DNA from: Parolsenella massiliensis
Lineage (GTDB): Bacteria; Actinomycetota; Coriobacteriia; Coriobacteriales; Atopobiaceae
Assembly (NCBI RefSeq): GCF_900143685.1
Contig: NZ_LT671675.1
Location: forward strand, 1,109,985-1,173,984
Direction of reading: 5' to 3'
DNA length: 64,000 bases
The stretch's first letter is position 1. Every line of letters starts with the position of its first letter. The translations under genes were made by a program, and so were the position numbers. The notes below the pieces were generated by a model, which was not told where the DNA came from, did no database searches, and saw nothing but the letters and a program-made list of their open reading frames with translations. Below are positions 50,993 through 57,966 of the stretch, piece by piece.

Positions 50993-53614
50993 CTAGTCCT
51001 CGTAGTTCTTGGGCTCGCGGCCGTAGTAGGCGTCGAGGTAGAGCTCCTTGATCTCGCTCATGAGCGGGTAGCGCGGGTTGGCCGGCGTGCACTGGTCGTT
51101 GAACGCGTTCTCGGTCATCTCGTCGAGGGTGTCGAGGAAGTACTTCTCGTCCACGCCGTACTCGGCGATCGTGTGCTTCACGCCCACGTGGTCGCACAGC
51201 TCGTTGATCTTCTTGACGAAGTTCTCGAACACCTCGTCATCGTTCTTGCCGGTGACGCCGCAGTAGCGGGCGGCCTCGGCGTAGCGGGCCTTCGCGTGCG
51301 GGTAGGCGTACTGCGGGAACGTGCCCATCTTGGTGGGGACGTCGGCGGCGTTGTAGCGCATGACGCGCGTGAGGATGACGGCGTTGGCCAGGCCGTGCGG
51401 GATGTGGTGGTAGGCGCCGAGCTTGTGGGCCATGGAGTGGTTGAGGCCGAGGAAGGCGTTGGCGAAGGCCATGCCGGCCAGGCATGAGGCGTTAGCCATG
51501 CGCTCGCGAGCCTCGGGGTCGGCCGCACCGTTGTCGTAGGCGCGCGGCAGGTAGTCGAAGACGAGCTTCATCGCGCGCAGCGCCATGGAGTCGCTCCAGT
51601 CGCTGGCCATGACCGAGACGTAGGCCTCGAGGGCGTGGGTAAGGACGTCAACGCCAGAGGCACTCGTGAGGCCCTTGGGCTGCGTGTCCATGTTGTTGGC
51701 GTCGACGATGGCCATGTTGGGCAGCAGCGCGTAGTCGGCGAGCGGCCACTTGATGCCCGTCTCGGCGTCGGTGATGACGGAGAACGGCGTGCACTCAGAG
51801 CCCGTGCCCGAGGAGGTGGGGATGGCCACGAAGTAGGCCTTGGAGCCCATCTCGGGATAGGTGTAGACCCTCTTGCGGATGTCCATGAAGTCCATGGCCA
51901 TGTCCTCGAAGTTGGCCTCGGGGTGCTCGTAGAGGACCCACATGATCTTACCGGCGTCCATGGCAGAGCCGCCGCCGAAGGCGATGATCACGTCGGGCTC
52001 GAAGCTCGTGAGGATCTCGGCGCCCTTGCGAGCGCACTGCAGCGTGGGGTCAGGGGCGACGTCCCAGAAGCAGGCGTGCTCGATGCCCAGCTCGTCAAGC
52101 TTCTGCTCGATGGGCTTGATGAAGCCGTTCTTGAACAGGAACTGGTCGGTGACGATAAACGCGCGCTTCTTGTGCATGACGCGGCCGAGCTCGTCGAGGG
52201 CGACGGGCTGGCAGCCCCTCTTGAAGTAGACCTTCTCGGGTGCGCGGAACCAGAGCATGTTCTCCCGCCTCTCTGCGACCGTCTTGATGTTGAGCAGGTG
52301 CTTGGGTCCGACGTTCTCGGAGACGGAGTTGCCGCCCCAGGAGCCGCAGCCCAGCGTGAGGGACGGAGCGGTCTTGAAGTTGTAGAGGTCGCCGATGCCG
52401 CCCTGCGAGGACGGGGTGTTGATGAGGATGCGGCACGTCTTCATGGCCTCGGCGTGCTTGGCCATCTTCTCCTTCTCCGTCGTGGAGATGAACAGCGAGG
52501 AGGTGTGGCCGTAGCCGCCGTCCGCCACGAGGCGCTCGGCCTTGGCGATGGCCTCGTCAAACGTCTTGGCCTTGTACATGCCCAGGACCGGCGAGAGCTT
52601 CTCGTGGGCCATCTCCTCGGAGGGCTCCACGCTCGTGACCTCGCCGATGAGGATCTTGGTCTTCTCGGGCACGTCGACGCCGGCCATCTTGGCGATGGTG
52701 TGGGCGCTCTGGCCCACGATCTTGGCGTTGACCGAGCCGTTGATGATGACGGTCTTGCGGACCTTGTCGAGCTCGGCGCCCTTGAGGAAGTAGCAGCCGC
52801 GGGCCTTGAACTCGGCCTTGACGGCGTCATAGACGTCCTCGAGTACCGTGACGGACTGCTCGGAGGCGCAGATCATGCCGTTGTCGAAGGTCTTGGAGTG
52901 GATGATCGAGTTCACGGCAAGCTTGACGTCTGCCGTGGAGTCGATGATGGCGGGCGTGTTGCCGGGGCCCACGCCCAGGGCAGGCTTGCCCGAGGAGTAC
53001 GCGGCCTGGACCATGCCCGGGCCACCGGTGGCCAGGATGATGTCGGCGGAGCGCATGAGCTCGTTGGTGAGCTCGAGGGACGGCTGGGCGATCCAGTCGA
53101 TGATGCCCTCGGGGGCGCCGGCGGCCACGGCGGCGTCACGCACGATGCGGGCGGCCTCGATGGTGCAGGCCTTGGCGCGCGGGTGCGGACTGATGATGAT
53201 GGCGTTGCGGGTCTTCAGGCAGATGAGCGTCTTGAAGATGGCCGTGGACGTGGGGTTGGTGGTGGGGATGACGGCGGCGACGATGCCGATGGGCTCGGCG
53301 ATGCGCTTGTAGCCAAAGGACGGGTCGTCCTCGATGACGCCGCAGGTCTTCATGTCCTTGTACTTGTTGTAGATGTACTCGGCCGCGTAGTGGTTCTTGA
53401 TGACCTTGTCCTCCACGATGCCCATGCCGGTCTCCTCGACCGCCATCTTGGCAAGCGGGATGCGCGCCTTGTTGGCCGCGATGGCCGCCGCGTGGAAGAT
53501 CTTGTCGACCTGCTCCTGGGAGAACGTGGCGAACTCGGCCTGCGCCTTGCGCATGGACGCGATTCGCGAGGTGAGGGCATCGAGAGAGTCGATGGCCTTC
53601 TCCGCCTTTGCCAT
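50993..53614 (-). CDS. adhE: Bifunctional acetaldehyde-CoA/alcohol dehydrogenase AdhE
   Basis: 873 aa fermentative enzyme that reduces acetyl-CoA to ethanol in two steps with NADH. The N-terminal aldehyde dehydrogenase half has its catalytic Cys249 in FDNGMICASEQS and PIGIVAAVIPTTNPTSTAIFK near 108-128. The C-terminal iron alcohol dehydrogenase half shows FGGGSAMDAGKIMWVLYE, SSGTGSECTPFSVITD, and the iron-ligand segment GLNHSMAHKLGAYHHIPHGLANA. Length is typical, and no frameshift is seen. Points to ethanol-forming or mixed-acid fermentation. ATG 53614 has GGAGG upstream. Confidence 0.96.
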   Translation of the reverse strand: MAKAEKAIDSLDALTSRIASMRKAQAEFATFSQEQVDKIFHAAAIAANKARIPLAKMAVEETGMGIVEDKVIKNHYAAEYIYNKYKDMKTCGVIEDDPSFGYKRIAEPIGIVAAVIPTTNPTSTAIFKTLICLKTRNAIIISPHPRAKACTIEAARIVRDAAVAAGAPEGIIDWIAQPSLELTNELMRSADIILATGGPGMVQAAYSSGKPALGVGPGNTPAIIDSTADVKLAVNSIIHSKTFDNGMICASEQSVTVLEDVYDAVKAEFKARGCYFLKGAELDKVRKTVIINGSVNAKIVGQSAHTIAKMAGVDVPEKTKILIGEVTSVEPSEEMAHEKLSPVLGMYKAKTFDEAIAKAERLVADGGYGHTSSLFISTTEKEKMAKHAEAMKTCRILINTPSSQGGIGDLYNFKTAPSLTLGCGSWGGNSVSENVGPKHLLNIKTVAERRENMLWFRAPEKVYFKRGCQPVALDELGRVMHKKRAFIVTDQFLFKNGFIKPIEQKLDELGIEHACFWDVAPDPTLQCARKGAEILTSFEPDVIIAFGGGSAMDAGKIMWVLYEHPEANFEDMAMDFMDIRKRVYTYPEMGSKAYFVAIPTSSGTGSECTPFSVITDAETGIKWPLADYALLPNMAIVDANNMDTQPKGLTSASGVDVLTHALEAYVSVMASDWSDSMALRAMKLVFDYLPRAYDNGAADPEARERMANASCLAGMAFANAFLGLNHSMAHKLGAYHHIPHGLANAVILTRVMRYNAADVPTKMGTFPQYAYPHAKARYAEAARYCGVTGKNDDEVFENFVKKINELCDHVGVKHTIAEYGVDEKYFLDTLDEMTENAFNDQCTPANPRYPLMSEIKELYLDAYYGREPKNYED

Positions 53615-54126
53615 AGCTACCTCCAGATCGGTTCACGGACGGGCGTTTTGGCCCGCCCAGACTGACGATTGGCCGCCTGCGACCGGAGAGGCTCGCATGG
53701 GGCCATTGGCCTTTTGGACATGCATAAAAGAGTAAGGCTCCGAACGATGTCTATGATACTGGAGAAATGCCCTGTTTTATGCCCAGTTGGGCGAGCGGTT
53801 GGCCGTCTACCTGCGGTTGAGTAGCGGTTTGTGGTCATTTGAGTGATGAGAGCAACGGGTCAGTTGACTACGGATGCATGGGCAACGCGCACGATTAGCG
53901 CATAGCATTCAATGATAATTGCATACAATTGGATATGTCACGCTAATACGCCGCAGCACAGGCGCCCCGTAACGCAAACCTTGCTTGCATAGGGGCATAA
54001 TCCGCAGGTTGAAACAACGGAAATCGTGTAAACCTGGCGAGTGGTATGGACGGATACCGCTCGCAGCCAAAAACCGACCGCCCGCCTTTGGGAAGACCGC
54101 CCGCCAATCCGCGAGCGGCAGCCGAC
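53615..54126. other. Gene-free interval upstream of adhE
   Basis: A 512-bp stretch, AT-richer than its surroundings, presumably holding the adhE promoter and leader, although I could not pick a convincing -35/-10 pair or a Rex-type operator. Visible structure: a hairpin GCGAGTGGTAT/ATACCGCTCGC (54037-54047 with 54054-54064), a direct repeat GACCGCCCGCC at 54076 and 54095, and a spaced ATTAGCG/CGCTAAT pair (53894, 53941). Confidence 0.5.
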
Positions 54127-54191
54127 GGTGACATTTTGGCCCCGTCCCCAGATGTCACCGTGACAGTTGGGGACGGGGCCGTTTTGTCACC
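54127..54191. repeat. Double GGGGACGGGGCC palindrome overlapping a stop codon
   Basis: GGTGACA and GGCCCCGTCCCC on the left pair with GGGGACGGGGCC and TGTCACC on the right, with TGTCACCGTGACA in the centre: two copies of the dispersed element head to head. The stop TGA and final Arg codon CGG of the membrane-protein gene (54187) lie in its right arm. GGGGACGGGGCC followed by GTTTT makes it a plausible bidirectional terminator. Confidence 0.8.
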
Positions 54192-54636
54192 GCTCGAAGA
54201 TGAGGTGGGTGGCAGTGCAGATGAGCCCGGGTAGAACGAAGGCGATTCCTCCCAGCAAGGTGAGGGCTTTTCCACCTGTCAGGGAGACGTCAGTGAATCC
54301 CAGGAGGAACGAACCAGCAGTCTGGGGCACAACAATGCAGACAATAGACAGGCAAACCAGGACGAGAAGCGAGGCGAGCAGAGCGCGTCGACCGCATCCG
54401 ACAGCCACGGCAACCGCGTAGCCAAGGAGCAGCCACATAAGCGGACGAGACAGAATAACCGCGGCTAGAGTTGCCCCATCGACTCCCGTGATAGTGTTTG
54501 GAACGCCAGTGATAAGGCCATACGCCTCCACGAGCGCGGCACCCCAGACCGGCCCCAACGACGGCAGCCGAAACCAGGCGAGCGCCGCCAGCAACGCAAG
54601 GACAAACAGAATAGCTGCAAGCTTCGGCCTTCTCAT
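54187..54636 (-). CDS. Hypothetical four-helix membrane protein in the secreted-paralogue cassette
   Basis: 149 aa. Four hydrophobic segments (about 5-22, 55-78, 84-104, 118-143); between the first two is a loop GLITGVPNTITGVDGATL. No recognised family. ATG 54636 is preceded by GGGAG at 11 nt; an ATG 36 nt upstream would add a polar stretch. It is 39 nt downstream of a secreted protein gene on the same strand and probably part of one transcript with the two secreted genes. Membrane partner, immunity protein or export helper are possible roles; none is shown by the sequence. Confidence 0.65.
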   Translation of the reverse strand: MRRPKLAAILFVLALLAALAWFRLPSLGPVWGAALVEAYGLITGVPNTITGVDGATLAAVILSRPLMWLLLGYAVAVAVGCGRRALLASLLVLVCLSIVCIVVPQTAGSFLLGFTDVSLTGGKALTLLGGIAFVLPGLICTATHLIFER

Positions 54637-54675
54637 AGCACTAGTCTCCCTTGCTATAGAGGGCAAACGCAACGA

Positions 54676-55110
54676 TCAGTGGACCTCGTAGCTGTATTGC
54701 CACACCTCTGCATAGCCCGATGCGGATCCATAACCAGGTATATATGCCTGTCCGAAGTCGTAGGTCCTTGTTCCTAGAAGGGTTGGAGCCTTTCGGATAT
54801 AGTACTGACGATACGCAAGGCCCTTGGTGGTTTCTCCGAAATAGTAGTCCTGAAGAAAAGTGCCACCGGCTATGCCAGTAAATAGCTGATAGGTATCAAC
54901 GACATCGTCGTACAGGAGCCTTCTCTCGGTCCCTTGGTCTTCATTTTCAACAATGGAAGACAGCGCAAACGAAGGCACTTCTAAAGAAGACGGGGTAAGA
55001 GCAACGGCCTTATGCGGCAGCACGGTAAGCACCATGGAAAGCGCAATCAGTGCGAGAAACGGGGCTGCAATTGGTATTCCCAAGACACGATGCTTGTGAT
55101 TGGCGTTCAT
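54676..55110 (-). CDS. Hypothetical secreted protein, paralogue of the next gene
   Basis: 144 aa with a signal peptide (about 1-38, ending in HKAVA before LTPSS). The mature part shares motifs with the gene at 55142: SFALSSI, YDDVVDTY, YRQYYIRKAPTLL, and a C-terminal YSYEVH. No Cys, no recognisable domain; many Tyr and Gly. AGGAGG lies 5 nt before ATG 55110, a very strong ribosome-binding site. GC content is clearly below the window average, which suggests transfer. Confidence 0.65.
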   Translation of the reverse strand: MNANHKHRVLGIPIAAPFLALIALSMVLTVLPHKAVALTPSSLEVPSFALSSIVENEDQGTERRLLYDDVVDTYQLFTGIAGGTFLQDYYFGETTKGLAYRQYYIRKAPTLLGTRTYDFGQAYIPGYGSASGYAEVWQYSYEVH

Positions 55111-55141
55111 GTCACCCTCCTAAGTTTTGTGTCGCTAGTTA

Positions 55142-55528
55142 TTAGTAAGTTTCATAACTACAGCTAAATCGCTTCAACATCCCGTTATGCGTAGGATCTG
55201 TTGGGCAGGGGTATTGTGCAATCGAGTAAAGTAGAGTATCGGGATACTTTCTCGTGTATCCGTTTCTATAGGTGAGCGTGCGATATACCGGCTCGAACAC
55301 TTTAATGTCATGAGACGACGTTTGGTAACAGAAAAAATAGCCATATGAGTCAAGCACGTCGTCAATCTTGGAACGCTGTACTTCAACAGATGAGAGTGAG
55401 GCCAAAGACAACGAATCGGGAATTGTTGCAGCAGCTACTGCGGGCGTTGAAAACAGCACCTGAGCGGAAGCAAACAAGCCGCAAAGGATGACAGACAATC
55501 TTTTGCGCGAGATAGTATCATGTCTCAT
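55142..55528 (-). CDS. Hypothetical secreted protein, first gene of a three-gene cassette
   Basis: 128 aa with a signal peptide (about 1-32, SAQVLFSTPAVA before AATIPD). The mature part shares LASLSSV, IDDVLDSY, YRNGYTRKYPDTLL and a C-terminal CSYETY with the downstream paralogue. Unlike it, this one has three Cys (FFCYQ, YPCPTD, FSCSYE), so a disulphide is possible. ATG 55528 has GAGGT just upstream. Not recognised; codon use is AT-rich compared with flanking genes. Confidence 0.65.
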   Translation of the reverse strand: MRHDTISRKRLSVILCGLFASAQVLFSTPAVAAATIPDSLSLASLSSVEVQRSKIDDVLDSYGYFFCYQTSSHDIKVFEPVYRTLTYRNGYTRKYPDTLLYSIAQYPCPTDPTHNGMLKRFSCSYETY

Positions 55529-55771
55529 ATTGACCTCACAATCTAATGACGAGTCCTTTAATTACCTACAGCACCTATATGCAGGATGTGGGCTTGGTTT
55601 GCACGACGACTACCGCCGAGCGGCATCGATATTCCGGCCAGCGGGACTGGGACGACTTCAATTCCCATATTTGTCCTTGGACCAGATTCCAGAGCATCTG
55701 TAATATCTAGCCCAGCCACATATCGATGAGCCATTTTGCATCGCCGGGCCAGCTGACAATTCGAAGACTGC

Positions 55772-55826
55772 AAAACGACCCCCTCCCTAACTGGCGAATT
55801 CCAACCGTTAGGAAAGGGGTCGTTTT
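55772..55826 (-). terminator. Hairpin terminator after the gene at 55828
   Basis: AAACGACCCC...CCTAAC pairs with GTTAGG...GGGGTCGTTT; on the minus strand the stem is followed by TTTTGC. The flanking GGGGTCGTTTTGTCA resembles the palindrome at 54.17 kb, and TCA at 55828 is the stop of the gene. Confidence 0.75.
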
Positions 55827-55827
55827 G

Positions 55828-56190
55828 TCATCGAGCGAAAACCCGCTCGAGGCGGAGGACCTCGGAGCGGGCGTCGCCCGTGGCGGTGCGCGCGTCGTAG
55901 CGGGCCCAGGTCCCGTCCGCGAGCAGGACGTCCACGAGGGGACCGAAGCCGCCGCGCAACGTGCTCGAGGCCTCGCGATAGCAAGGGTCGCTCGTAAGGC
56001 CGGGATAGCGCACGGCCAGGACGTCATCACGGCACACGAGGTAGCTCGCCACCACCTGCGCCACGTCCGAGACGCGGCGCCACGTGTCCGCGTCCATGCC
56101 CGCCTGCATCTCGAGCAGCACGGACAGGCAGGGGCCTCCCCCGCCACACGGCAGGAGAGGCCCCTCGGAGTTGTGAATGCGGATGCTCAC
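55828..56190 (-). CDS. Hypothetical protein downstream of thrS
   Basis: 120 aa, 12 nt after the thrS stop on the same strand, so probably co-transcribed. No signal peptide or membrane segment. A Gly-rich start (LLPCGGGGPCLSVLLEMQAG), a helical middle (DADTWRRVSDVAQVVASYLVC) and DVLLADGTWARYDARTATGDARSEVLRLERVFAR at the end. I do not recognise it. Codon use matches the chromosome (high GC at third positions), which supports a real gene. Confidence 0.6.
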   Translation of the reverse strand: MSIRIHNSEGPLLPCGGGGPCLSVLLEMQAGMDADTWRRVSDVAQVVASYLVCRDDVLAVRYPGLTSDPCYREASSTLRGGFGPLVDVLLADGTWARYDARTATGDARSEVLRLERVFAR

Positions 56191-56202: not shown

Positions 56203-57966
56203 CTAGCTGCGGCGCTCGGCGATCTCTGCGGAGACCTCGGCGATGAACTCGTCCAGGCTCTTCTGGACCGTCTCGTTGGAGCGGTCGCGGACGGAGACGT
56301 TACCGGCCTCGACCTCCTTCTCGCCCAGGATGAGCATGTAGGGCACGCGGTCGATGGAGCGGGCCTCGCGGATCTTGTAGCCGATCTTCTCGTCGCGGTC
56401 ATCGCACACGGCGCGGATGCCGGCGGCCTCAAGCTTGGCGGAGACCTCGTCGGCGTAGGCGCGGCTCTTCTCGGAGACGGGAAGGACCTTCACCTGCACG
56501 GGCGCGAGCCACGTGGGGAACTTGCCGGCGTAGTGCTCGATGAGGATGCCGATGAAGCGCTCGATGGAGCCGAAGCACACGCGGTGCAGCATGATGGGGC
56601 GCTTCTTGGAGCCGTCGGCGTCGACGTACTCCAGGTTGAAGTTGAGCGGCATCTGGAAGTCGAGCTGCACCGTACCGCACTGCCAGGTGCGACCGAGCGA
56701 GTCCTCGAGGTGGAAGTCGATCTTGGGGCCGTAGAAGGCGCCGTCGCCCTCGTTGACCTCATAGTCCATGTGGAGCTGCTCGAGGGCGGTCTTGAGGCCC
56801 TCCTCGGCGCGAGCCCAGTCCTCGTCGGAACCCATGGAGTCCGCCGGGCGCGTGGAGAGCTCGACGTGGTACTTGAAGCCGAACTTCTGGTACACGGAGT
56901 CGATGAGGTTCACGACGCCCACGATCTCGTCGGTGAGCTGGTCGGGACGCACGAACAGGTGCGCGTCGTCCTGGTTGAAGCAGCGCACGCGGAACAGGCC
57001 GTGCAGGGCGCCGCGCAGCTCGTGACGGTGCACGAGGCCGATCTCGCCGGCGCGGATGGGCAGCTCGCGGTAGGAGTGCGGCTTGGAGGCGTAGACAAGC
57101 ACGCCGCCCGGGCAGTTCATGGGCTTGATGCAGTACTCCTCGTCATCGATGACGGTGGAGTACATGTTGTCCTTGTAGTGGTCCCAGTGGCCCGAGGTCT
57201 TCCACAGCTGCTTGTTCATGATGAGCGGCGTGGAGATCTCCACGTAGCCGGCCTTGTGGTGAATCTCGCGCCAGTAGTCGAGCAGGGCGTTCTTGAGGAT
57301 CATGCCGTTGGGCAGGAAGAACGGGAAGCCCGGGGCCTCGTCACGCATCATGAACAGATCCATCTCGCGGCCGATCTTGCGGTGGTCGCGCTTCTTGGCC
57401 TCCTCGATGACGCGCAGGTGCTCGTCGAGCTCGTCCTTGGTGGCGAAGGCGACGCCGTTGATGCGCGTGAGCATCTTGTTGTTCTTGTCGTCCTTCCAGT
57501 AGGCGCCCGAGACGCCCGTGAGCTTGAAGGCCTTCACGGCCTTGGTGTAGCAGACGTGGGGACCGACGCACATGTCGATGTAGTCGCCCTGCTGGTAGAA
57601 CGTGATGCGCGCGTCCTCGGCAAGGTCGCCGATGTGCTCGACCTTGTACTTCTCGCCGCGCTCCTCCATGAGCTTGATGGCCTCGGGACGCGGGAGCTCG
57701 AAGACGGAGAACTTGAGGTTCTCCTTGCAGATCTTCTTCATCTCGGCCTCGATGGCGGGCAGGTCGTCCTCGCCGATCTTCTTGTCGCCAAGGTCGACGT
57801 CGTAGTAGAAGCCCTTCTCGGTGGCCGGGCCGTAGGCGAAGTCCGCCTCGGGGTACAGGCGCTTGATGGCCTGGGCCATGATGTGGGCCGCGGAGTGGCG
57901 GATGACGTGGGTGACCTCGTCTGCCGGGCACTCGTCGACGTGGCCGTCGTTGTAGAGAACCTTCAT
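56203..57966 (-). CDS. thrS: Threonyl-tRNA synthetase lacking the TGS domain
   Basis: 587 aa class II synthetase. It begins MKVLYNDGHVDECPADEVTHVIRHSAAHIMAQAIKRLYP, so the N-terminal TGS domain (about 60 residues) of the standard enzyme is missing, while the editing domain is present (HSAAH, YIDMCVGPHV). Catalytic motifs include IKPMNCPGGVLVYASKPHSYRELPIR (zinc Cys) and GLVHRHELRGALHGLFRVRCFNQDDAHLFV, ending in the anticodon-binding domain. No upstream in-frame start with a TGS sequence and no T-box leader is visible. Confidence 0.94.
   Translation of the reverse strand: MKVLYNDGHVDECPADEVTHVIRHSAAHIMAQAIKRLYPEADFAYGPATEKGFYYDVDLGDKKIGEDDLPAIEAEMKKICKENLKFSVFELPRPEAIKLMEERGEKYKVEHIGDLAEDARITFYQQGDYIDMCVGPHVCYTKAVKAFKLTGVSGAYWKDDKNNKMLTRINGVAFATKDELDEHLRVIEEAKKRDHRKIGREMDLFMMRDEAPGFPFFLPNGMILKNALLDYWREIHHKAGYVEISTPLIMNKQLWKTSGHWDHYKDNMYSTVIDDEEYCIKPMNCPGGVLVYASKPHSYRELPIRAGEIGLVHRHELRGALHGLFRVRCFNQDDAHLFVRPDQLTDEIVGVVNLIDSVYQKFGFKYHVELSTRPADSMGSDEDWARAEEGLKTALEQLHMDYEVNEGDGAFYGPKIDFHLEDSLGRTWQCGTVQLDFQMPLNFNLEYVDADGSKKRPIMLHRVCFGSIERFIGILIEHYAGKFPTWLAPVQVKVLPVSEKSRAYADEVSAKLEAAGIRAVCDDRDEKIGYKIREARSIDRVPYMLILGEKEVEAGNVSVRDRSNETVQKSLDEFIAEVSAEIAERRS

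What the first reader, a model, noticed from the sequence alone, without database searches (positions are those of the whole stretch)
54187..55528. AT-rich three-gene cassette: two paralogous secreted proteins plus a small membrane protein
The proteins at 55142 and 54676 share LSS(V/I), DDV(L/V)D(S/T)Y, YR-x(2)-Y-x-RK-x-P-(x)-TLL and a C-terminal SYE, so they arose by duplication, yet I recognise neither. Both have signal peptides and strong ribosome-binding sites; a four-helix membrane protein follows. Base composition differs from the chromosome. Such a unit could be a secreted effector or bacteriocin pair with an immunity protein, or surface factors. This is the best candidate here for an undescribed system.
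Basis: partly seen in the sequence, partly recalled or inferred. Interest (0 to 1): 0.6.

Follow-up and report, generated by a model that had tools for sequence, protein, structure and literature searches.

The report
Paired secreted beta-protein cassette in coriobacteria
A gut-type bacterium carries two small, exported, distantly related proteins from an apparently undescribed family that may be a new kind of antibacterial weapon or signal, found only patchily among its relatives and often tied to a transporter gene.

Summary
Confirmed: on the minus strand, A (55142-55528) and B (54676-55110) are paralogous secreted proteins, followed by a small membrane protein M (54187-54636), with GC3 of 0.47-0.65 against 0.96 for neighbours. 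None reaches a family in Pfam, NCBIfam, PHROGs or PADLOC.

They belong to a family of 29 distinct members, sporadic in two bacterial families (24 of 205 genomes). Singles sit beside an ABC permease/ATPase (18 of 20; the other 2 have cut-off context), often with a regulator. Tandem pairs lack it (0 of 5 loci). A and B are not a local duplication: each is its own well-supported clade (97/94, 99/99) spanning both families, always ordered A then B. All five pair genomes also hold an ABC-linked single. AlphaFold gives both a confident four-stranded meander without a significant PDB match; in about half the members four Cys/His residues suggest a metal site. In the sister species one clean deletion removed A and most of B but kept M.

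Best reading: a new family of Sec-exported antibacterial proteins, working like lactococcin 972 but not a member; M possibly immunity. Antibacterial function is inferred, not shown. Main rivals: a transporter accessory protein, or a secreted signal.

The parts
55142..55528 (-). gene A: 128-aa secreted protein, A subfamily; four-stranded meander predicted; C31, H37, C72, H78 (numbering of the 92-residue model) at one end
54676..55110 (-). gene B: 144-aa secreted protein, B subfamily, same predicted fold with longer strands, no cysteine in the loops
54187..54636 (-). gene M: 149-aa small membrane protein, known only from this genus, kept in the sister species under purifying selection (dN 0.097, dS 0.290)
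54794..55527 (-). stretch absent from the sister genome G001 (A and the first part of B); alignment resumes on both sides
55529..55770 (-). AT-rich leader upstream of A (GC 0.50), also kept in G001; presumed promoter region
54126..54192 (.). palindrome with 33-nt arms just after M; one of about 12 genomic copies of a repeat
55771..55827 (.). palindrome with 21-nt arms upstream of A; related to the one after M (36 nt, 78%)

Best explanation
A and B are the two parts of a Sec-exported, unmodified antibacterial protein (a two-component, bacteriocin-like agent) of an undescribed family of small beta proteins. Shown: the family, the pairing, conserved order and close spacing, two old subfamilies, a shared predicted fold, sporadic presence, ABC linkage of the single relatives, loss in the sister species. 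Inferred: the two are made together, leave by Sec, and act together at the envelope of close relatives, as lactococcin 972 does at lipid II; A's loop end is probably held by a metal ion (Cys/His cluster). M, or the ABC transporter encoded with the third paralogue in the same genome, protects the producer.
For: Signal peptides in 27 of 29 distinct members (of the 2 ORFs without one, one search shows a stop after the signal peptide of L067 B, and searches report an in-frame TGA for the L069 member). Five pair loci, always A then B, ORF gaps from -22 to +31 nt. A clade 97/94, B clade 99/99. 18 of 20 singles lie 0-275 nt from an ABC ATPase or permease gene on the same strand, 0 of 5 pair loci do; the ATPases rank DrrA and lantibiotic-protection models among their best, far below curated cut-offs. 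All 5 pair genomes are among the 24 of 205 that hold a single (1.5e-5 if independent). Two-component systems lie beside L029, L072 and the L026 pair. Lower GC than the locus in 29 of 29. G001 lost A and most of B and kept M, and also lacks the single and the permease; pneumococcal scb, a lactococcin-972-like bacteriocin locus with shown activity, lacks the bacteriocin gene but keeps scbBC in 157 of 571 genomes (PMC11796350, section 5). B is broken in 2 of 5 pair loci.
Against: No activity is known for any member. M is not shared by the other pair loci. M is kept in G001 at dN/dS about 0.33, so it may have a job of its own. Mature A and B are slightly acidic (K+R 9 and 7, D+E 10 and 13), whereas many bacteriocins are cationic (recalled). 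The ABC linkage fits a transporter accessory protein equally well. The co-occurrence of pair and single is not corrected for relatedness. Broken B genes come partly from draft assemblies.
Confidence: 0.45

Rival explanations
1. The single proteins are extracytoplasmic accessory subunits of their neighbouring ABC transporter, which exports or expels some other compound; A and B are copies that left the transporter and act on it in trans.
For: Linkage to the transporter in 18 of 20 singles, usually directly after the ATPase; pair genomes always also have an ABC-linked single; the permeases tested have no Pfam family.
Against: The pair has its own A and B clades without a transporter beside it; members are very divergent, while an accessory subunit would be expected to be constrained; in one orthologous set the small protein changes faster than the transporter (dN 0.047 against 0.027 at dS 0.088 and 0.089).
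Confidence: 0.22
2. The proteins are secreted signals sensed by the neighbouring two-component systems or membrane LuxR-type regulators, with the ABC transporter as part of sensing or resetting.
For: Two-component genes directly beside L029, L072 and the L026 pair; LuxR-type membrane regulators beside L025, L027, L065, L069; HTH and/or DUF2975-like genes beside L031, L045, L070, L071.
Against: Folded beta proteins of about 90 residues are large for Gram-positive pheromones (recalled); the regulators are of three unrelated kinds and none was found beside the window pair, the L028 pair, the L064 pair or the L067 pair.
Confidence: 0.15
3. A and B are surface or host-directed proteins (adhesion or immune modulation) in a gut anaerobe, and M is an unrelated membrane gene.
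For: Secreted, divergent, AT-rich, patchy. A fish-streptococcal homologue of streptococcin B is reported to interfere with monocytes (PMC11796350 discussion passage), so roles can overlap.
Against: No cell-wall anchor or adhesin domain was found; ABC and regulator linkage of the relatives is more usual for antimicrobial loci than for adhesins (recalled).
Confidence: 0.13
4. A decaying remnant: old foreign genes with no present function.
For: A and most of B deleted in G001; B broken in 2 of 5 pair loci; low GC3.
Against: In the window A, B and M are all intact with ribosome-binding sites; family residues and predicted fold are kept across two bacterial families; M is under purifying selection.
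Confidence: 0.05

Closest known systems
Lactococcin 972 family (Pfam PF09683) with its three-gene operon, e.g. streptococcin B scbABC
   Same: Small, thought to be Sec-exported, unmodified beta protein; operon with an ABC-type transporter thought to give immunity; strains that lack the bacteriocin gene but keep the partner genes (PMC11796350 abstract, sections 3 and 5 and passages; PMC4786598 passages).
   Different: No PF09683 match for A, B or the other members at E<=10; profile comparison with a marginal lactococcin-972-like protein of G019 gives probability 0.1%; predicted fold is a four-stranded meander, the published one a beta-sandwich (PMC11796350 passage); the L025 ATPase scores 63.6 bits against a cut-off of 254.85 for the lactococcin-972 ABC model; the window locus is a two-protein version without ABC genes.
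Lantibiotic-protection (LanFEG-like) and DrrAB-type ABC transporters
   Same: ATPases of the single loci rank these models among their best.
   Different: All far below curated cut-offs; permeases tested match no Pfam family; no lanthipeptide enzyme was recognised by eye beside the loci.
Two-peptide (class IIb) bacteriocins
   Same: Two different secreted partners from adjacent genes followed by a small membrane protein (definition recalled, not from a call).
   Different: Sec-type signals rather than double-glycine leaders; models of 92 and 106 residues, all beta.
Zinc ribbons
   Same: Cys-x5-His in one hairpin loop and Cys-x(1-5)-His/Cys in the other, expected at the same end of the predicted sheet (ribbon anatomy recalled).
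   Different: Only one of 24 members matched any zinc-finger model (a CCCH finger, E 7e-4); metal binding untested; about half the members lack the residues.

Membership tests
Lactococcin 972 (PF09683) | sequence match to the family model above its cut-off of 22 bits | tested here: not met
   No match at E<=10 for A, B, M or any of 24 members; no match over cut-off in the 12 genomes searched
Lactococcin 972 (PF09683) | beta-sandwich fold | tested here: inconclusive
   AlphaFold models are four-stranded meanders; no significant PDB match for either model
Lactococcin 972 (PF09683) | Sec signal peptide | tested here: met
   Hydrophobic N-terminus in 27 of 29 members, A and B included; no SignalP available
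Lactococcin 972 (PF09683) | lactococcin-972-group ABC transporter beside the gene (TIGR03608) | tested here: not met
   L025 ATPase scores 63.6 bits against cut-off 254.85; no ABC gene of this kind within 6 kb of the window pair
Lactococcin 972 (PF09683) | lipid II binding, inhibition of septum formation | not testable with these tools
   needs purified protein
Two-peptide (class IIb) bacteriocin | two different peptides from adjacent genes | tested here: met
   A then B in 5 of 5 pair loci
Two-peptide (class IIb) bacteriocin | double-glycine leader and dedicated peptidase exporter | tested here: not met
   Sec-type signals; no exporter gene recognised in the pair loci
Two-peptide (class IIb) bacteriocin | synergistic killing | not testable with these tools
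   needs culture assay
Zinc ribbon | four Cys/His ligands from two hairpin loops | tested here: inconclusive
   All four in 11 of 24 distinct members including A; first Cys and second pair both absent in 11; first Cys alone in 2; Fisher p 3e-5 without correction for relatedness; too few independent changes to test on the tree

The most novel reading that the evidence does not exclude
A and B form a hetero-oligomeric antibacterial protein of a family, and perhaps a fold, not described before, with a metal-capped A subunit and a metal-free B subunit; the producer depends in trans on the ABC transporter that travels with a single-gene paralogue, so that pair, single and transporter together make one system peculiar to coriobacteria.
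Probability: 0.25. Interest if true: 0.8.

Novelty: new variant of a known kind. Interest (0 to 1): 0.6.

Why it matters
Collinsella and its kin are common gut bacteria, and how they compete is little known. A family of small secreted proteins with its own transporter and a two-protein version, absent from the protein-family libraries searched, would give direct candidates for new narrow-spectrum antibacterials or signals, and perhaps for a new small beta fold. The loss of the pair with M kept in the sister species is a ready natural experiment.

Tried and rejected
Local duplication of A into B: rejected, because both subfamilies recur together in other genera. Membership in lactococcin 972: tested and not met by sequence. 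Defence-system or phage proteins: no PADLOC match, only chance-level PHROGs matches. No plasmid record matched B and no phage record matched the L064 A protein. The DNA pattern for the Cys/His type gave 0 viral contigs and 6 genome contigs, of which 2 held family members and 4 did not.

M relatives in genus g33 (E 2e-4 to 8e-4) were rejected: the matched frames hold stops, other genes lie there, and no family member is near. M and the 169-aa membrane protein of L028 are not alike by BLASTP.

Weak matches dropped: with the full-length profile A2 about 20 places scored at E 1e-5 to 1e-3, nearly all on long frames of roughly 490-640 aa over the N-terminal columns; they did not reach E 0.001 with the mature-only profile A3 in the genomes searched again and are not counted. 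The same holds for G058. G404 (family f9) is kept in the tree and the adjacency count but not among the 205 genomes.

Rows dropped before counts: 5 near-identical rows before the Cys/His table (24 of 29 used); the broken B of L028 is not among the 29.

Fold searches of both models in PDB and of A in viral models gave nothing with E below 0.001; the best VIA-align Z was 3.6 for A (rmsd 4.0, 55 aligned) and 3.0 for B (rmsd 6.7, 63 aligned). Pore-forming proteins in these lists are at noise level and were not used. A beta-sandwich of the lactococcin 972 kind did not appear in the rows shown, which excludes nothing. Literature searches listed no paper on such a family in coriobacteria; only the listings and the three papers named were looked at.

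Full report
The minus strand carries, between adhE (50993-53614) and a small gene after thrS (56203-57966), gene A (55142-55528), gene B (54676-55110) and gene M (54187-54636) (adhE and thrS recognised from memory). A and B are 31% identical by BLASTP with E=1e-6, and the mature parts alone score above all of 2000 shuffles. GC3 is 0.47, 0.52 and 0.65 for A, B and M against 0.96 for both adhE and thrS. A, B and M have no match in Pfam (E<=10) or PADLOC (E<=1); NCBIfam and PHROGs gave one chance-level match each, for M (E 1.7) and B (E 0.31).

The genome itself holds a third relative at C1:42099-42440, directly after an ABC ATPase and a permease. A profile of the three found more in the family of the window, and a ten-row profile found them in a second family. 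With a mature-only profile of 24 rows, 5 of 140 genomes of the window's family and 19 of 65 of the second family hold members; in 396 genomes drawn across the phylum 5 did, all from these two families. One pair was also met in a named record, Collinsella aerofaciens D40t1 (L114), differing from the pair of G230 by 0 bases in A and 1 in B, and the contig length of L116 (Coriobacteriaceae MAG) equals that of the G387 contig. The second family is therefore taken as that of Collinsella; the window's family is probably Atopobiaceae (inference from memory).

All loci together gave 29 distinct members, 27 with a signal peptide-like N-terminus. They share D-x-V-x-D-T-Y near the start of the mature part, a central Y-K-x-L and a C-terminal aromatic-rich end, often K-C-x-Y-x-x-W. 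All 29 have lower GC than their locus, by 14 points at the median.

Two arrangements stand out. Of 20 single members, 18 have an ABC ATPase, permease or permease-ATPase fusion on the same strand, the nearest transporter gene 0-275 nt away; the remaining two (L045, L050) are near-copies of members that do, and their fetched context is cut. The tandem pairs, in five loci (window, L026, L028, L064, L067), have no such transporter within 6 kb, or within the context held (3.7 kb downstream for the L064 pair). The permease type occurs once in the window's genome, with the single, and not in the sister genome G001. Around many loci are regulators of three kinds: two-component systems, membrane LuxR-type proteins, and HTH genes with DUF2975-like membrane proteins.

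The pair is old. In a maximum-likelihood tree of the 29 members, the five A genes form one side of a branch with support 97/94 and the four intact-enough B genes with 99/99; both contain members of the two bacterial families. The order is always A then B, with ORF gaps from -22 to +31 nt. The alignment is short and several end branches are long, so only the starred branches are used. All five genomes with a pair (G000, G019, G030, G230, G387) belong to the 24 of 205 with a single (1.5e-5 if independent; not corrected for relatedness).

Structure. AlphaFold models of mature A (mean pLDDT 92.8, pTM 0.73) and B (90.4, 0.68) show four long strands in a row. Foldseek found no match with E below 0.001 in solved structures for either or in viral models for A, and VIA-align found no Z above 3.6. 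This does not prove a new fold. Across 24 distinct members 11 have all four (the last being His or Cys), 11 lack the first Cys and the second pair, and 2 have the first Cys only. The fourth position being Cys instead of His in three types (L064 A, L070, L071) favours a metal site over a plain disulfide, but that is inference, and the tree offers too few independent changes to test it.

Sister species. G001, the only other genome held of the genus, keeps the upstream region and M but lacks about 54794-55527 in one clean step; only the last 39 residues of B remain recognisable. M there is 85% identical, dN 0.097 and dS 0.290, against 0.006 and 0.187 for the end of thrS. B is broken in two other pair loci: truncated in G019 and with a stop just after the signal peptide in G387. 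A is open in all five.

How it probably works. The nearest functional analogue is lactococcin 972: a small unmodified beta protein, exported by Sec, that binds lipid II, made from a three-gene operon whose other two genes are thought to give immunity or transport (passages of PMC4786598; abstract, sections 3 and 5 and passages of PMC11796350; passages of PMC7438565). In pneumococcus 157 of 571 genomes encode only the two partner genes (PMC11796350 section 5), which is what G001 looks like with M. The coriobacterial proteins are not members of PF09683. A marginal lactococcin-972-like protein exists elsewhere in G019 (L120; 16-17 bits against a cut-off of 22), so the model can pick up such a protein while giving nothing for this family. 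I commit to a two-component antibacterial protein as the likeliest reading (0.45), with the transporter-accessory reading next (0.22). The weakest link is M: strong relatives are confined to the genus (2 of 140, own genome included) and other pair loci do without it.

Novelty and interest. As a protein family this is absent from the libraries searched; as a kind of system it would be a new variant of Sec-exported bacteriocins. Because function is unproven, interest is set at 0.6.

Noticed in passing
54126-54192 and 55771-55827: Two related palindromes bracket the A-B-M cassette; the shared sequence occurs 12 times in the genome with 0-2 mismatches and 0 times in the reversed control, so it is a repeat family, perhaps terminator-like or REP-like.
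   Followed up: partly
55828-56190 (-): 120-aa gene between thrS and A, weakly like the C-terminal part of Cys/Met-metabolism PLP enzymes (Pfam E 0.002, below cut-off), also present in the sister genome; a shrunken enzyme or a new small gene.
   Followed up: no
L120:1324-1698: A marginal lactococcin-972-like secreted protein in G019, below the Pfam cut-off but matching the whole model.
   Followed up: partly
L067:6167-7113: An A/B pair sits between a methionine aminopeptidase-like gene and what looks like infA, inside a ribosomal-protein operon (infA recognised from memory).
   Followed up: no
L066:4506-6806: A transporter fusion and its single small protein lie just upstream of ribosomal protein genes (rplE recognised from memory).
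   Followed up: no
L064:1940-16668: A 27-kb contig of G230 holds both a pair and an ABC-linked single, with a ParA-like ATPase and a large secreted protein with a CAP-domain match at the cut-off; possibly a mobile element.
   Followed up: no
L025:6143-8053: Large membrane protein with two LuxR-type DNA-binding stretches beside the third paralogue; similar proteins sit beside other single loci.
   Followed up: partly
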